A stretch of 20,020 nt of DNA. It comes from a virus. The translations under genes and the position numbers were made by a program. The DNA lies in IMG/VR virus record IMGVR_UViG_3300010883_007844, positions 1 through 20,020 of that record; one strand, given 5' to 3'. Below are positions 1 to 20,020 of the stretch, piece after piece. Position 1 is the stretch's first letter. Each line of letters opens with the position of its first letter. The notes under the pieces were generated by a model. The model saw nothing but the letters and a program-made list of their open reading frames with translations, did not search any database and was not told the DNA's origin.

Positions 1-49
1 CCTTCCGTTCACTCATGACTACTTTGGGTGTTCGGTGGGGCTTCAGCCC

Positions 50-117
50 TTTTTTTGGCTGTTTTGGGGTGTTTTTTGGCTGTTTTGGCCTGTTTTGGCC
101 TGTTTTTGGCCTGTTTT
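50..117. repeat. Phased T-tract repeat, probable intrinsic bend
   Basis: The short unit GGCCTGTTTT and close variants are iterated. Runs of four to seven T begin at 50, 62, 72, 83, 93, 103 and 114. From 62 on the spacing is 10, 11, 10, 10 and 11 bases, close to one B-DNA turn. A/T-tracts in helical phase are a known cause of intrinsic DNA curvature. A second short series begins at 171, 181 and 192. The 15-mer TTTTTGGCCTGTTTT at 103-117 recurs at 344-358. Confidence 0.7.
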
Positions 118-130
118 GGGGTCAAAATGG

Positions 131-144
131 TAAATTTATATTTT
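131..144. other. A/T-only run, candidate unwinding element
   Basis: Fourteen consecutive A/T bases (TAAATTTATATTTT) sit between the phased T-tracts and the DnaA-box-like sites, in DNA otherwise rich in G. In bacterial origins an A/T-rich duplex-unwinding element usually lies beside the DnaA boxes. The role here is inferred from position only. Confidence 0.35.
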
Positions 145-212
145 GGCTTTTCTACGGAGAGTGGTCGGTATTTTTCGGTGTTTTTTGGCTGTTTTGAGGA
201 ATAGTTGAAAAC

Positions 213-326
213 CTGTGGATAACTCCCTTTGGAACTTGGATCGCAGGAAGTTATTCACAGGTTTATGCAAGTTGGGGCAACCACCGAAAGTGGTAATTAG
301 CTTGGCTCGCAGGAAGTTATCCACAG
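213..326. promoter_or_regulatory. Cluster of three DnaA-box-like sites
   Basis: The nonamer TTATCCACA occurs at 317-325 on the + strand and at 214-222 on the - strand; the variant TTATTCACA occurs at 251-259. All fit the DnaA-box consensus TTATNCACA. Each is part of a 12-bp motif AGTTATYCACAG (213-224 inverted, 249-260, 315-326). Three such sites within 114 bases is far beyond chance. They could recruit host DnaA for phage replication, regulate transcription, or titrate DnaA. Confidence 0.65.
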
Positions 327-336
327 TTGGGGCAAC
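235..336 (+). repeat. Direct repeats carrying DnaA boxes (iteron-like)
   Basis: A 26-bp element at 235-260 recurs at 301-326 with two mismatches (240/306 and 255/321), offset by exactly 66 bases. Each copy is followed by GTTGGGGCAAC (271-281 and 326-336), itself a small inverted repeat (GTTG-GGG-CAAC). The first copy has ten extra bases (261-270) between the two parts. Another small inverted repeat, ACCAC/GTGGT, lies at 280-294. The arrangement resembles iterons of replication origins. Confidence 0.65.
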
Positions 337-554
337 TTTGCGGTTTTTGGCCTGTTTTCGGGATTTGGGCTGGCGCCCCACTTTGGCGGGTTTCTGGTTT
401 TGGGTGGTGGTGTGCTGGTGGGGTCTGGTCTAGGGTGTGGTTGGTGGTTGGAAGGCGGTCGGGCCCGTGCCAGAGTCTGGTGCGGGCTTTGCCGCGTGTG
501 GGGCGTCTTTTGGTGTAGGGTGGCGGGGAGCTATTGGGTAAGGTGCGTTTCTTT

Positions 555-4803: not shown

Positions 4804-6168
4804 ATGTCAGATGGCCGTATTGTGAACGGTGTGCCGGTGCCGACCAGCCCCGAGGAGATGGCGGAACTCGCCGCCGATAACGACCTGTGGGCGAAGGTCA
4901 CTGAGACCCCGGAGATCCGCGCCGAGTTCCTGACCGCTTACAACGCGGCGATGAACAAGGCCGGCAAACTCGCCGACCAGCTCGAGGAGTCCATTTCGGC
5001 GGGCATCATCGACCAGCTCAAGGAGTGGGGAGTCGCCGAGAACAAGGTCGACTTTTCGGAACTGACGAAAGAGATCCGCAGCCTCAAGCCCGGAGCACGG
5101 GATAAGGGTTACAACCCGAGGGCGCTCGGCGCTCAGCTCGATGATATGTACGACAACCCGGCGGACTTCTTCAAGGACATTTGGCACCTGACCAACGAGT
5201 CGGACGACCTCCGGGCCCGCCACACTCGGCTAAAGAACGCTTTCAGTGAGAAGGTGCCCAGCGAGGGCGGGTTCCTTGTGCCGGAACAACTCCGGTCTGA
5301 TCTGCTGCGAGTAGCGATCGATCGTTCCATCGTTCGACCCAGGGCCCGTGTCGTGCCGATGGATTCGTTGCGTGTTCCTTTTCCGATGATCGACTCGACG
5401 TCTAACGCCACGTCCGTCTACGGCGGCATCGTCGCTTACTGGACCGAAGAGGGCGGCACCATGACCGACGTGTCGCCGAAGTTCGGCCGGTTGGTGCTCG
5501 AAGCTAAGAAGCTCACCGCCTATACGGAAGTACCGAACGAACTGGTGTCCGACTCGATCTCATCGTTCGCGGTGTTCATCGAGGAACTGTTCCCTGAGGC
5601 GCTAGCTCACTTTGAAGACGTCGCATTCTTCGGTGGCTCCGGTGCCGGCGAACCCCAGGGCTTCCAGAACGCTGCGTGCTCGGTCGACGTGGCGAAACGT
5701 ACCGGCCAGGCAGCGACAACGATCGTGTGGGAGAACCTTGTCGATATGTATTCCCGGATGTTGCCGGGGTCGCTCGACCGTGCCGTGTGGGTAGCGCACA
5801 TTGACACGTTCCCGGAGCTAGCCACCATGGCCCTGTCTGTGGGTACAGGAGGCTCAGCCATCTGGCTAAACAACGGAGTCGAGGGGCCCCCGATGACGAT
5901 CCTCGGCCGGCCGGTGATCTTCACGGAGAAGATGGAGACGGTCGGGACGCTCGGCGATATCGCGTTCGTCGACTTCGGTTACTACCTGATCGGCGACCGG
6001 CAGGTCATGACCGCCTCCAGCTCGCCGCATTTCAAGTTCCAGACGGATCTGACGGCGTACAAGATTATCCAGCGGGTGGACGGCAAAATGTGGCTCCAGT
6101 CGGCGATCACGCCGGAGACAGGTTCTACCACGATGTCGCCGCTGGTACGACTCGCGACAAGGGCTTAG
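4804..6168 (+). CDS. Major capsid protein (HK97 fold)
   Basis: This 454-residue protein should form the icosahedral shell. The first ~150 residues are charged and helical, like a delta/scaffold domain that the upstream protease would remove. The mature HK97-type part starts near SEGGFLVPEQLRSDLL (153-168), with VPFPMIDS, the EAKKLTAYTEVPNEL strand, the FFGGSGAGEPQGF loop and a C-terminal VDGKMWLQSAITP stretch. Such SEGG-LVP and GxGxxEPQG motifs are hallmarks of the family. AGGAG at 4793-4797 sits six bases before ATG, one of the best ribosome-binding sites in the window, as expected for the most abundant product. A hairpin follows the gene at 6177-6221. Confidence 0.95.
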   Translation: MSDGRIVNGVPVPTSPEEMAELAADNDLWAKVTETPEIRAEFLTAYNAAMNKAGKLADQLEESISAGIIDQLKEWGVAENKVDFSELTKEIRSLKPGARDKGYNPRALGAQLDDMYDNPADFFKDIWHLTNESDDLRARHTRLKNAFSEKVPSEGGFLVPEQLRSDLLRVAIDRSIVRPRARVVPMDSLRVPFPMIDSTSNATSVYGGIVAYWTEEGGTMTDVSPKFGRLVLEAKKLTAYTEVPNELVSDSISSFAVFIEELFPEALAHFEDVAFFGGSGAGEPQGFQNAACSVDVAKRTGQAATTIVWENLVDMYSRMLPGSLDRAVWVAHIDTFPELATMALSVGTGGSAIWLNNGVEGPPMTILGRPVIFTEKMETVGTLGDIAFVDFGYYLIGDRQVMTASSSPHFKFQTDLTAYKIIQRVDGKMWLQSAITPETGSTTMSPLVRLATRA

Positions 6169-16896: not shown

Positions 16897-17177
16897 ACCC
16901 GGACGATGACGGTCGGAACGATGATCGAGACGACGATTTACACGATGCCGTTTTTGGGAGGCCACAAATTAATCATCCAGGGCTGGTTACAGACACGAAA
17001 ACGCTCCGCGCGGACCTGGCCGACGAACGTGTTAGACGTGCTGAGGGTGATAAACGTATTTGGGATAGGGTCGAGGTCGTTGCCCGGAAAGTCGACAGGA
17101 TCATCTGGGTGTCGGCAACGTCAGGCCTAGTAGGCGCGGTGACCGGCGGCGGGCTCGTCACTTGGTTGATGCCCTGA
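16893..17177 (+). CDS. XhlA-like membrane protein of lysis cassette
   Basis: This 94-residue protein has a very acidic start (NPDDDGRNDDRDDDLHDA), a coiled-coil-like charged section (TLRADLADERVRRAEGDKRI, then WDRVEVVARKVDR) and one C-terminal hydrophobic helix (WVSATSGLVGAVTGGGLVTWL). This resembles hemolysin XhlA-type proteins that act with holins. TTG 16893 is chosen because GGAGG (16883-16887) lies five bases upstream and TTGA overlaps the tail-tip stop; GTG 16869 is an alternative. Its stop overlaps the endolysin start by one base. A holin, antiholin or endolysin-anchoring role is likely, but not decided by sequence. Confidence 0.65.
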   Translation: MNPDDDGRNDDRDDDLHDAVFGRPQINHPGLVTDTKTLRADLADERVRRAEGDKRIWDRVEVVARKVDRIIWVSATSGLVGAVTGGGLVTWLMP

Positions 17178-17932
17178 TGCCGGCTACACCGAACGTCGCG
17201 CGGATGATCTTGGCGGTACGGGCCGAGTTCGAGCCACGGACAGACGCCGGCGAGTTCGGCGACGCCCGACTGATCGGGATCGGTGTCTGCAACTGCCGCA
17301 AGAAACGGGGCAGTTCCTCGTGGTCGCATCACGCCTGGTGCAACGCCGGAGACATCCGGATCTCACGCCGCACGATTGCGACACCCGACGAGCGGCGCCT
17401 CGGTGACGCCATCAACGACTACCTTGCCGCCAACCGTGACCAGCTCGCCATATACCGCATTCTTTGGTGGCAGCGCTCTACCTTTACCGGCAACACCATC
17501 ACGGGCCACAGGGACCACCTACACGCCGTGCCGTGGCCCTACGGCATCGGGACACCGCCATGTGCCGGCGGCGTCCTCGAAGTGCGGCACCGTGACGGGT
17601 CGATAGGTAACACGTTCGGGATACTCGAGCCACCAGGCGCCGACATAGGAGACGAAGCAATGCAAACGAAAGAACTGACCGCCCTGTTGCAGTCGTCGCT
17701 GATCGACGCCGGCTACGACTTGGGTGACTTCGAGGGGTTGACCGTTGAGAACCCCGACGGGACGGTCACGCAATACCCGGACGGCGCCGACGGCATAATT
17801 CGCTTACGGGCCGGCGTGTCGTATCCGGCGCTGGTGGCCGGGCTCGTGCCTGATAATATCGACGCCGACGAGTTCGTCACCGACCAGGAACTGGCCGCCC
17901 ACGCTTACAACGCCGACGCCCACCACGCATAA
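17177..17932 (+). CDS. Endolysin, M15-like zinc peptidase domain with C-terminal extension
   Basis: This 251-residue protein probably cuts peptidoglycan cross-bridges at lysis. The first ~130 residues look like a VanY/M15-type or extensin-like D,D-peptidase: SSSWSHHAWCNAGDI with His51/52 and Asp59, then TGHRDHLHAVPWP with His114 and His116, the expected zinc-ligand pattern. C38 and C40 are also close to the site. Residues 162-251 are a different acidic part beginning MQTKELTALLQSS, possibly wall-binding. A ribosome-binding site (AGGAG, 17647-17651) and ATG 17660 at this boundary may start a separate short product. ATG 17177 overlaps the previous stop (TGATG). No signal peptide is seen, so a holin is needed for release. 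Confidence 0.72.
   Translation: MPATPNVARMILAVRAEFEPRTDAGEFGDARLIGIGVCNCRKKRGSSSWSHHAWCNAGDIRISRRTIATPDERRLGDAINDYLAANRDQLAIYRILWWQRSTFTGNTITGHRDHLHAVPWPYGIGTPPCAGGVLEVRHRDGSIGNTFGILEPPGADIGDEAMQTKELTALLQSSLIDAGYDLGDFEGLTVENPDGTVTQYPDGADGIIRLRAGVSYPALVAGLVPDNIDADEFVTDQELAAHAYNADAHHA
17660..17932 (+). CDS. Possible internal-start product of endolysin gene
   Basis: ATG 17660 is in frame within the endolysin and is preceded by AGGAG at 17647-17651 with eight bases between, a better site than that of the full-length gene. The product would be about 90 residues, beginning MQTKELTALLQSSLIDAGY and ending VTDQELAAHAYNADAHHA. Some phage lysins make such in-frame short forms that join the full-length enzyme as extra wall-binding subunits. 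Translation here is inferred only. Confidence 0.35.
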   Translation: MQTKELTALLQSSLIDAGYDLGDFEGLTVENPDGTVTQYPDGADGIIRLRAGVSYPALVAGLVPDNIDADEFVTDQELAAHAYNADAHHA

Positions 17933-17945
17933 GGAGTACAGATCC

Positions 17946-18128
17946 ATGTTCCAAGTATTAAAAGACCTAGTAGGGGGCGCGCCTGTGCGGTCGCTCGGTA
18001 TCGGCACCGTCCTCGCATCGGCATATGATGTGGTGTGGCCGACCGATGTCGCGTCGTACCTTGTGCTCGTCCTGGCTGGTTTGACCGCTATCTATGCCCA
18101 CCGAGACGAGAAGACGGCCGTGGTGTAA
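17946..18128 (+). CDS. Small holin-like membrane protein
   Basis: This 60-residue protein has a basic/amphipathic start (FQVLKDLVGGAPVRS), a moderately hydrophobic first segment (LGIGTVLASAYDVVW), a clear second one (VASYLVLVLAGLTAIYA) and a charged tail (HRDEKTAVV). Size, one or two membrane helices and its place directly after the endolysin support a holin that makes membrane lesions at the set lysis time. AAGGAG at 17931-17936 precedes the ATG with nine bases between. An intrinsic terminator follows at 18155-18213. Small membrane proteins cannot be assigned safely without tests. Confidence 0.6.
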   Translation: MFQVLKDLVGGAPVRSLGIGTVLASAYDVVWPTDVASYLVLVLAGLTAIYAHRDEKTAVV

Positions 18129-18139
18129 AGTAGGCGTCG

Positions 18140-18288
18140 CCTCTTACCCAGGCTGCGGCGCAGGCCCAAGTCGTGATCGGTGTTCCCGCGTGACTTGAGC
18201 CGGCCGCTTTTCTAATTCCTGGTTCTGTCGCTCGGTATGTGTATGGTGCTAGTTCGCGGTCCGACCGGACTGCGGAAAGGGTAAGAGG
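18140..18288 (+). repeat. Ten-bp inverted repeat spanning the leader and covering a ribosome-binding site
   Basis: CCTCTTACCC (18140-18149) is the exact reverse complement of GGGTAAGAGG (18279-18288), with one extra G-U pair possible. The right arm contains AAGAGG, the ribosome-binding site of the gene at 18293. The arms enclose the terminator hairpin. RNA reading through from the lysis operon could pair and hide this site, while RNA started between the arms could not. This function is inferred. Confidence 0.5.
18155..18213 (+). terminator. Intrinsic terminator after lysis cassette
   Basis: GCGGC (18155-18159) pairs with GCCGC (18203-18207) and GGCCCAAGTC (18163-18172) with GACTTGAGCC (18192-18201), with one mismatch and a small internal loop. 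The loop is 19 bases. TTTTCT (18208-18213) follows directly. This fits a Rho-independent terminator closing the late head-tail-lysis operon. Confidence 0.6.
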
Positions 18289-18292
18289 TCTC
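18214..18292 (+). promoter_or_regulatory. Leader of recombination operon, possible promoter and operator
   Basis: This short gap lies between the terminator and the 72-aa gene. A weak -10-like TATGGT occurs at 18242-18247 without a convincing -35. CGGTCCGACCG (18257-18267) is a perfect small inverted repeat and could be a repressor site. A promoter is expected here because the terminator precedes it, but I cannot place it with confidence. Confidence 0.3.
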
Positions 18293-18511
18293 ATGGCTGA
18301 CTATTTGATTGTTTCCGTGCCGGAGCACGAGGGCGTCGAACCCGTCGTACTGGATCACGTCGAGGATGTCGACAGCCTTAAGGCCGCGGTCGACATCTCT
18401 AGCCACGTACTGATACCGGGTGAATTTGTCGACGTCTATCGCGTCTTCGCTGGACCACGGCGAGTGCATGTTGTCGAGACGGTCACTAGGTCAATTGTCG
18501 ACGTCGTATGA
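18293..18511 (+). CDS. Small protein of recombination operon, unknown function
   Basis: This 72-residue protein is acidic and probably alpha/beta: ADYLIVSVPEHEG, VVLDHVEDVDSLKAAVDIS, HVLIPGEFVDVYRVFAG and VHVVETVTRSIVDVV. No known motif is evident. ATG 18293 is preceded by AAGAGG (18283-18288), and its stop overlaps the exonuclease start by ATGA (18508-18511). This coupling suggests a role with the recombination proteins, or a regulatory role, yet it may simply be an early-phase protein. Codon use is like that of the neighbours. Confidence 0.65.
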   Translation: MADYLIVSVPEHEGVEPVVLDHVEDVDSLKAAVDISSHVLIPGEFVDVYRVFAGPRRVHVVETVTRSIVDVV

Positions 18512-19473
18512 CCTGGCACGGCGTACCGATCGAACACGAGAACGAAGCCGCCTGGCTCGAGGCACGCCGCGACGGTATCGGCGCCAGCGACGTGTCCGGC
18601 ATCGTCGGCCTCTCGCCCTACTCGTCGCCGTTCTCCGTGTGGGCTGACAAGGTACACGGCAGCACCCGCGAGCCGACGTATGGAATGCAGCTCGGTAAGA
18701 AGCTAGAGGACATCATCCTCGAGTCGTTCGAGGAGCAGACGGGTCTTTTCGTTCCGACGCTCGGCCGGCAGCTACACATCGCGCACCCACAGTTCGCCTG
18801 GGCACAGGCGACACTCGACGGGATCGTTTATGAGGGGCACGACACCGCGCCGGACGCTGACTACGGCGCTATAGCCAACGCGATCGGTGTCGTTGAAGCT
18901 AAAACAGACGGCCGCTTTGAGCGGTGGGCGAAGGTGCCCGACCACCACCAAATTCAGGTGCAGTGGCAGATGTACGTGTCGGGATTAGAGCACGGATGGC
19001 TCGCGGTGCTCCACGGCGGGCGACTCTTCGAGGTGTACGACATCGAGAAGGATCTCGGCATACAGGAACAGCTCGTGACGAAGGTGTCGCAGTTCCGGGC
19101 CAAGCACCTGATGGTCGACCCGGCCGAGAACAACGGTGAACCGCTCCCACCTGACGCCGACGACCACCGGGCCACGTCCTCGTCGATCGCTGAGCTATGG
19201 CACTCGCCGGCTGATGACGAAGTGATCGACCTGTCTAAAGCGATGGCCGCTGACGTCACAGCGCTGCTGGGTCTGAAGATCGGGAAGGCCGACATCGACG
19301 CTCAGATCCGTAAAGTGTCAGCCCGTATCAAGATCGCGTTGCGGGACGCCGCCGTTGGTAACTACGGCGGGCGGACCGTCGTCACCTGGAAGAAGCAGAC
19401 ACGCGAGGGCTACTACGTCGACCCGCACGACTTCCGGGTGCTACGGACACCGAAACCGAAGGAGACACCATGA
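18508..19473 (+). CDS. YqaJ-type exonuclease (phage recombinase nuclease)
   Basis: This 321-residue nuclease should resect double-stranded ends to give 3' single strands for RecT. Family motifs appear in order: WLEARRDGIGASDVSGIVGL (16-35) with the IGASD signature, GKKLEDIILESFEEQTG with E67, LDG with D104, VVEAKTDG with E130 and K132 (the PD-(D/E)XK core) and HHQIQVQWQMYVSGLEHGWL. The C-terminal ~100 residues are charged and helical, ending with TVVTWKKQTREGYYVDP. The ATG overlaps the 72-aa gene stop and the end overlaps RecT by ATGA, so all three are coupled. All catalytic residues look intact. Confidence 0.92.
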   Translation: MTWHGVPIEHENEAAWLEARRDGIGASDVSGIVGLSPYSSPFSVWADKVHGSTREPTYGMQLGKKLEDIILESFEEQTGLFVPTLGRQLHIAHPQFAWAQATLDGIVYEGHDTAPDADYGAIANAIGVVEAKTDGRFERWAKVPDHHQIQVQWQMYVSGLEHGWLAVLHGGRLFEVYDIEKDLGIQEQLVTKVSQFRAKHLMVDPAENNGEPLPPDADDHRATSSSIAELWHSPADDEVIDLSKAMAADVTALLGLKIGKADIDAQIRKVSARIKIALRDAAVGNYGGRTVVTWKKQTREGYYVDPHDFRVLRTPKPKETP

Positions 19474-20020
19474 CCGACACCGACCTATCGACCCGCATCG
19501 ACGCCGGGGGCCCCGAGAAGAAGGACGCCCTGGCGGTGATGCTCAACCACCACAAAGACCAGTTCGCCGTAAGCCTCACCAGCCGAACCGGGGCCCCGAT
19601 GATCGACCCCGACAAGTTCACACGGCTCGCCCTGACCACGCTCCGCACCGTCCCGAAACTCGCCGACTGCAAACCGTCGTCGCTGCTCGGTGCCCTGATG
19701 ACCTGCGCCCAGCTCGGGCTCGAACCGGGGGGCCCGCTCGGGCAGGTGTACCTAGTGCCGTTTAAGAACGAGGCGACGCTCATTATCGGTTACCAGGGCT
19801 TCATCGATCTGATGTACCGGAGCGACCGGGTGGCGTCAGTGTCCGCACACGCCGTCTACGAAGCCGACGAGTTCTATTTCGAGCTTGGCACCAACGCCCA
19901 CCTGTTGCACCGGCCGGCGCTCGACGACCGAGGCGAACTGATCGCCGTGTACGGCATCGCCGAACTAGTGAGCGGCGCGAAACCGTTCGACGTGCTGTCG
20001 AAATCCGACGTCGACAAGCG
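19470..20020 (+). CDS. RecT-type single-strand annealing protein (partial, cut at window edge)
   Basis: Only the first 183 residues lie in the window; the gene runs off the right edge. It should coat single-stranded DNA made by the YqaJ exonuclease and anneal it to complementary strands. RecT-family features are FTRLALTTLRTVPKLADCKP, SSLLGALMTCAQLGLEPGGP, LGQVYLVPFKNEATLIIGYQ and GFIDLMYRSDRVASVSAHAVY. The start has GGAG at 19461-19464 and overlaps the exonuclease stop (ATGA). Pairing with a YqaJ nuclease is the standard arrangement of a RecE/RecT-like module. Confidence 0.93.
   Translation, partial: MTDTDLSTRIDAGGPEKKDALAVMLNHHKDQFAVSLTSRTGAPMIDPDKFTRLALTTLRTVPKLADCKPSSLLGALMTCAQLGLEPGGPLGQVYLVPFKNEATLIIGYQGFIDLMYRSDRVASVSAHAVYEADEFYFELGTNAHLLHRPALDDRGELIAVYGIAELVSGAKPFDVLSKSDVDK

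What the first reader, a model, noticed from the sequence alone, without database searches (positions are those of the whole stretch)
18140..18292. Leader may silence recombination genes on read-through RNA
CCTCTTACCC (18140-18149), just after the holin-like gene, matches exactly the complement of GGGTAAGAGG (18279-18288), which contains the ribosome-binding site of the 72-aa/YqaJ/RecT operon. The pair also encloses the terminator. Late transcripts that read through would carry both arms and hide the site; transcripts starting from an internal promoter would carry only the right arm and be translated. This would be a simple switch that keeps early genes off on late RNA.
Basis: partly seen in the sequence, partly recalled or inferred. 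Interest (0 to 1): 0.58.

Follow-up and report, generated by a model that had tools for sequence, protein, structure and literature searches.

The report
Phage gene boundary with RBS-pairing arm
Between a phage's lysis-side genes and its recombination genes lies a terminator-like hairpin, a promoter-like motif and a ten-base match that could hide the next gene's ribosome-binding site on read-through RNA, but no relative was found that could show whether the match is more than luck.

Summary
[quoted passage not shown] It encloses a terminator-like hairpin, one extended -10-like motif and a leader hairpin. A fold of 18129-18300 forms the stem fully (z -3.5), and scrambling the left arm exposes the SD. 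The stem depends on context: it dominates in 13 of 21 distinct read-through contexts and vanishes in several longer ones.

Chance is not excluded. By shuffles, some gene start among 22 in the window would show such a match with probability 0.044; 5 of 622 naive starts in fetched loci and window had one of 10 or more, 2 of them long-range. No relative with this junction was found, so covariation is untestable.

The proposed switch is plausible and works like known T4 and IS200 read-through locks, with late and early reversed relative to T4. I rate an ordinary boundary with an incidental pairing slightly ahead of a selected lock. A trans-acting version was tested and not supported.

The parts
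17177..17932 (+). 251-aa protein, probable lysis/peptidase protein (weak)
   Evidence: No PHROG or Pfam hit; weak tblastn match over a third of its length to mycobacteriophage tape measure, endolysin and hypothetical proteins in 8 records, E 8e-4 to 6e-3
17946..18128 (+). 60-aa hydrophobic 'holin-like' ORF, last gene before the boundary
   Evidence: ORF and translation; no family hit; role inferred from position and hydrophobicity
18140..18149 (+). left arm CCTCTTACCC
   Evidence: exact reverse complement of 18279-18288
18155..18213 (+). intrinsic-terminator-like hairpin and TTTTCT tail
   Evidence: fold of 18154-18216, -27.6 kcal/mol; also in the fold; not listed by the consensus scan
18238..18247 (+). 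extended -10-like element TGTGTATGGT, no clear -35
   Evidence: only TGTGTATNNT in the window, both strands; not found by the sigma-70 scan; function inferred
18253..18276 (+). 10-pair hairpin at the inferred 5' end of the short leader
   Evidence: fold of 18253-18277, -16.2 kcal/mol
18279..18288 (+). right arm GGGTAAGAGG, holds the SD region
   Evidence: sequence; pairing
18293..18511 (+). 72-aa ORF, first gene of the operon, orphan
   Evidence: translation; no PHROG/Pfam hit; no match in the phage collection or viral contigs
18508..19473 (+). YqaJ/RecE-like exonuclease
   Evidence: PF09588 E 6.7e-24, phrog_434 E 5.2e-64
19470..20020 (+). RecT-like annealing protein, cut by the contig end
   Evidence: PF03837 E 5.1e-35, phrog_148 E 1.4e-51

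Best explanation
This is a boundary between a late (structural/lysis-side) and an early (recombination) module of a phage, probably of an actinobacterial host. An intrinsic terminator ends most late RNA at about 18213, and a separate promoter near 18238-18247 starts a short-leader mRNA for the 72-aa/YqaJ/RecT genes. Shown: the sequence elements and their predicted folds. Inferred: that the terminator and promoter work, and which genes are late or early. On any RNA that reads through, the 10-bp arm pairing would form at least part of the time and lower access to the SD, but I think it slightly more likely that this pairing is incidental than that it was selected.
For: Terminator-like hairpin with T run and the single extended -10-like motif; YqaJ and RecT downstream. 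Chance is adequate to give the arms: P = 0.044 over 22 gene starts by shuffles; 5 of 622 naive starts in fetched loci and window have a match of 10 or more, 2 of these 5 at long range; exact 10-nt inverted repeats are frequent in this window. The stem is absent in several longer contexts, in some of which other upstream segments pair with the SD.
Against: The match sits at a start that follows a terminator-like hairpin, its left arm lies just after the upstream stop codon and its right arm exactly on the SD; for this leader alone the shuffle frequency is 9 of 20,000. The fold is stable against shuffles (z -3.5).
Confidence: 0.52

Rival explanations
1. Selected read-through lock: the left arm pairs in cis with the SD on late RNA that escapes the terminator, hiding it; RNA from the internal promoter lacks the left arm and is translated. 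Terminator and lock together keep the early operon off on late RNA.
For: Exact 10-bp pairing, duplex -16.8 kcal/mol; full stem in 18129-18300; arm pairing 0.7 or more in 13 of 18 read-through contexts (13 of 21 distinct contexts); with local folding of 17600-18800 the outermost pair is 0.93 at span 160 and about 0.5 at span 300; left-arm shuffles: SD unpaired median 0.31 and 0.26 against native 0.001 and 0.003, 0 of 100 as low in each of two contexts. T4 genes e and I-TevI use the same logic.
Against: No relative to test covariation; pairing lost in contexts 18129-18450, 18040-18300, 17800-18300, 17800-18400, 17700-18511; the SD is already partly paired in the short leader (0.32-0.79 unpaired); promoter lacks a recognisable -35; no RNA data.
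Confidence: 0.38
2. Trans repression: the 3' end of terminated late RNA carries the left arm and pairs with the SD of early mRNA as an antisense.
For: Complementarity is the same; an SD-pairing 3'UTR is known within one mRNA for S. aureus icaR (abstract).
Against: Cofold gain -12.6 and -11.2 kcal/mol is matched or bettered by 9 and 12 of 100 arm-shuffled controls, and opening the left arm in terminated RNA costs 3.3-11.4 kcal/mol depending on the 5' end.
Confidence: 0.04
3. DNA-level inverted sites: the two GGGTAAGAGG copies are protein binding sites flanking the promoter (looping repressor or activator).
For: Exact inverted copies, 139 bp start to start, either side of the promoter-like motif.
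Against: No enrichment of the motif in the window: 16 sites at up to 2 mismatches against 13.6 expected; the right copy is explained by the SD.
Confidence: 0.05

Closest known systems
T4 gene e and I-TevI leaders (RBS sequestered on long early transcripts, freed on transcripts from a late promoter inside the stem)
   Same: A promoter placed between the arms yields RNA lacking the 5' arm; RBS hidden on read-through RNA (review passages)
   Different: T4 uses compact stem-loops and keeps genes off on early RNA that are expressed from late promoters; here the arms are 129 nt apart, enclose a terminator-like hairpin, and early-type genes would be off on late RNA. The T4 gene e structure is reported as demonstrated; this one is only predicted.
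IS200 (and Tn10/IS10) protection from external transcription
   Same: IS200 combines a terminator for impinging transcripts with an RBS-occluding stem (passage in PMC3196728; Beuzon 1999 and Davis 1985 seen as reference titles only)
   Different: Insertion sequence transposase, not a phage recombination operon; there two stem-loops, here one long-range helix enclosing the terminator-like hairpin
icaR 3'UTR-SD pairing (S. aureus)
   Same: A distant strand pairs with an SD and blocks initiation (abstract)
   Different: 3'UTR of the same mRNA, not an upstream read-through segment

Membership tests
T4-type read-through RBS lock | SD and/or start codon paired with an upstream arm | tested here: met
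   Exact 10-bp complement, stem predicted in 18129-18300
T4-type read-through RBS lock | Stem dominates in the read-through transcript | tested here: inconclusive
   13 of 21 distinct contexts at 0.7 or more; near 0 in several longer ones
T4-type read-through RBS lock | Promoter between the arms | tested here: inconclusive
   TGTGTATGGT at 18238, no consensus promoter by the scan
T4-type read-through RBS lock | Structure kept in relatives | tested here: inconclusive
   No relative with the junction found
T4-type read-through RBS lock | Translation repressed on long RNA, released on short RNA | not testable with these tools
   needs RNA mapping and reporters
IS200-type terminator plus RBS occlusion | Terminator upstream of the occluded RBS | tested here: inconclusive
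   hairpin with T run, -27.6 kcal/mol; not listed by the consensus scan
IS200-type terminator plus RBS occlusion | Transposase of the IS200 family | tested here: not met
   operon encodes an orphan 72-aa ORF, YqaJ and RecT

The most novel reading that the evidence does not exclude
A phage late-to-early boundary with a two-layer guard: a terminator, and wrapped around it a long-range arm pairing that hides the early operon's SD only on RNA that escaped the terminator, so late RNA cannot feed the recombination genes.
Probability: 0.35. Interest if true: 0.5.

Novelty: new member of a known kind. Interest (0 to 1): 0.27.

Why it matters
If true, it would extend read-through RBS locks, known from T4 and insertion sequences, to the late-to-early boundary of a phage of probable actinobacterial host, with the temporal order reversed relative to T4, and suggest a simple signature (SD complement placed just after the upstream stop codon, terminator and promoter inside) that can be searched for. 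If not, it shows how easily a GC-rich leader gives a ten-base SD match.

Tried and rejected
Covariation: no material. Viral contigs was scanned 8 of 8 times (YqaJ, 72-aa, holin-like, RecT, capsid, the two-arm DNA pattern, the RecT pair alignment, tail protein) and genome contigs 2 of 2. The nearest YqaJ/RecT relative (L002, 47-49% identity) has its YqaJ gene directly behind other ORFs and no homologous leader; in L002 and the next YqaJ relative L043 no listed start had a match of 10 or more (best 9 and 8), which says nothing about loss because the leaders are not homologous. The capsid relatives lack a YqaJ or RecT match and Streptomyces phage Dagobah has no such junction in its annotation. 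The 72-aa, holin-like and lysis-like proteins had no match at E <= 1 in the 82 loci compared, and none convincing in L084. BLASTN of the leader gave one 36-nt match at E 0.9. No Rfam family at gathering score.

Trans-acting 3' end: tested, not supported. DNA operator idea: no enrichment. Start at GTG 18239 in the same frame: considered and rejected, since it overlaps the -10-like motif and I see no SD before it. The 12-nt direct repeat GTCGCTCGGTAT (17990, 18227) as an operator: 3 sites at up to 2 mismatches against 2.4 expected. pLS20 establishment leaders (PMC8708921, passages) were read as a possible precedent and not used: no evidence of RNA sequestration there.

Full report
Observation. 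The right arm holds the SD region of a 72-aa ORF starting at 18293, which overlaps YqaJ (18508-19473), which overlaps RecT (19470 to the contig end); YqaJ and RecT are supported by Pfam and PHROGs, the 72-aa ORF by nothing. The left arm begins 12 nt after the stop codon of a 60-aa hydrophobic ORF whose holin identity is not supported by any family hit. The window is a whole 20,020-base virus record; RecT runs off its end, so the genome is not complete.

Surroundings. From the left the window carries terminase, portal, Clp-type protease, capsid and tape-measure genes, then a 1055-aa protein, a 102-aa ORF, a 251-aa protein with weak matches to mycobacteriophage tape measure, endolysin and hypothetical proteins and the 60-aa ORF. 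Relatives by DNA are Gordonia, Mycobacterium and Arthrobacter phages (179 records; the 20 listed rows all match in RecT); the best-placed capsid relative in the phage collection is Streptomyces phage Dagobah, 55% identical over 80%. An actinobacterial host is therefore likely, by inference. The leader holds a terminator-like hairpin (18155-18207 plus TTTTCT), one extended -10-like motif at 18238 (the sigma-70 scan lists none here) and a hairpin at 18253-18276.

Folding. 18129-18300 folds with the full arm helix at -77.6 kcal/mol, z -3.5, 0 of 200 shuffles as stable; part of this comes from the internal hairpins. Arm pairing is 0.7 or more in 13 of 18 read-through contexts, and in 13 of 21 distinct contexts when the printed ones are added; it is 0.03 or less in 18129-18450, 18040-18300, 17800-18300, 17800-18400 and 17700-18511. 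In local folding of 17600-18800 the outermost pair is 0.93 at span 160 and about 0.5 at span 300. The SD arm is 0.00-0.33 unpaired in the 18 read-through contexts and 0.32-0.79 in the 5 short-leader contexts, so read-through RNA would be less accessible, but partly through other partners, and the short leader is not fully open. Permuting the left arm's letters raised the SD's unpaired share from 0.001 to a median 0.31 (18129-18320) and from 0.003 to 0.26 (18080-18340); 0 of 100 permutations reached the native value in either.

Chance. A complement of 10 or more to the SD region in the 127 nt upstream arose in 9 of 20,000 shuffles. Over 22 plausible starts and 196 nt upstream each, the chance that any start shows one is 0.044; in the real window 18293 has 10 and the other 21 have 4 to 8. 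In 622 naive SD-bearing starts of the window and fetched loci, 5 had 10 or more; their arm gaps are 95, 22, 7, 7 and 136 nt, the two with gap 7 looking like homologues, so 2 of 622 are long-range. The naive starts include false ones. The pairing is thus unusual for this leader but not beyond chance for a reader who looked at the whole window.

Relatives. Nothing with this junction was found: YqaJ gave one viral contig, the 72-aa and 60-aa proteins and RecT alone gave none, the two-arm DNA pattern none, capsid four contigs without YqaJ or RecT, RecT as an alignment 70 viral loci and 4 genome loci, none with the 72-aa, 60-aa or lysis-like protein at E <= 1, the tail protein one locus without convincing matches to them. 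Compensatory change could not be tested. This is absence of material, not evidence against.

Mechanism. I take the region to be an ordinary late/early boundary with terminator and new promoter (inferred from sequence), and leave the arm pairing at roughly two in five as a selected read-through lock. The trans version was not supported: cofold gains of -12.6 and -11.2 kcal/mol are equalled or bettered by 9 and 12 of 100 arm permutations.

Known systems. T4 genes e, soc, 49 and I-TevI hide the RBS or start codon in a helix; for e and I-TevI the reviews state that RNA from a late promoter lacks the 5' part of the stem and is translated (passages of PMC3014915 and PMC2988022). IS200 pairs a terminator for impinging transcripts with an RBS-occluding stem (passage of PMC3196728). 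The icaR mRNA shows a distant strand blocking an SD (abstract of PMC3868564). The Tn10 and IS200 originals were seen only as reference titles. Literature searches naming phage read-through, RBS sequestration and recT or late transcripts listed no case that I could recognise from title and abstract start as one at a phage late-to-early boundary; these cover only open-licence PMC papers, and I read listings and passages only.

Noticed in passing
window 1-360: T-rich, lower-GC left end with repeated GGCCTGTTTTGG-like units and three DnaA-box-like sites (TTATCCACA at 214-222 minus and 317-325 plus, TTATTCACA at 251-259): possible DnaA-type replication origin next to the terminase genes. Four sites at up to one mismatch in the window are not rare by shuffles (10 of 100), but three cluster within 112 nt.
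   Followed up: partly
window 17990-18001 and 18227-18238: Exact 12-nt direct repeat GTCGCTCGGTAT, one copy in the 60-aa ORF and one directly upstream of, and overlapping by one base, the -10-like motif.
   Followed up: partly
window, whole: Excess of exact 10-nt inverted repeats within 220 nt: 19 counted (overlapping 10-mers included) against a shuffle mean of 8.05, 2 of 200 shuffles as many.
   Followed up: no
window 4804-6165: Capsid is 55% identical over 80% of its length to Streptomyces phage Dagobah, which has terminal repeats and no RecT annotated.
   Followed up: partly
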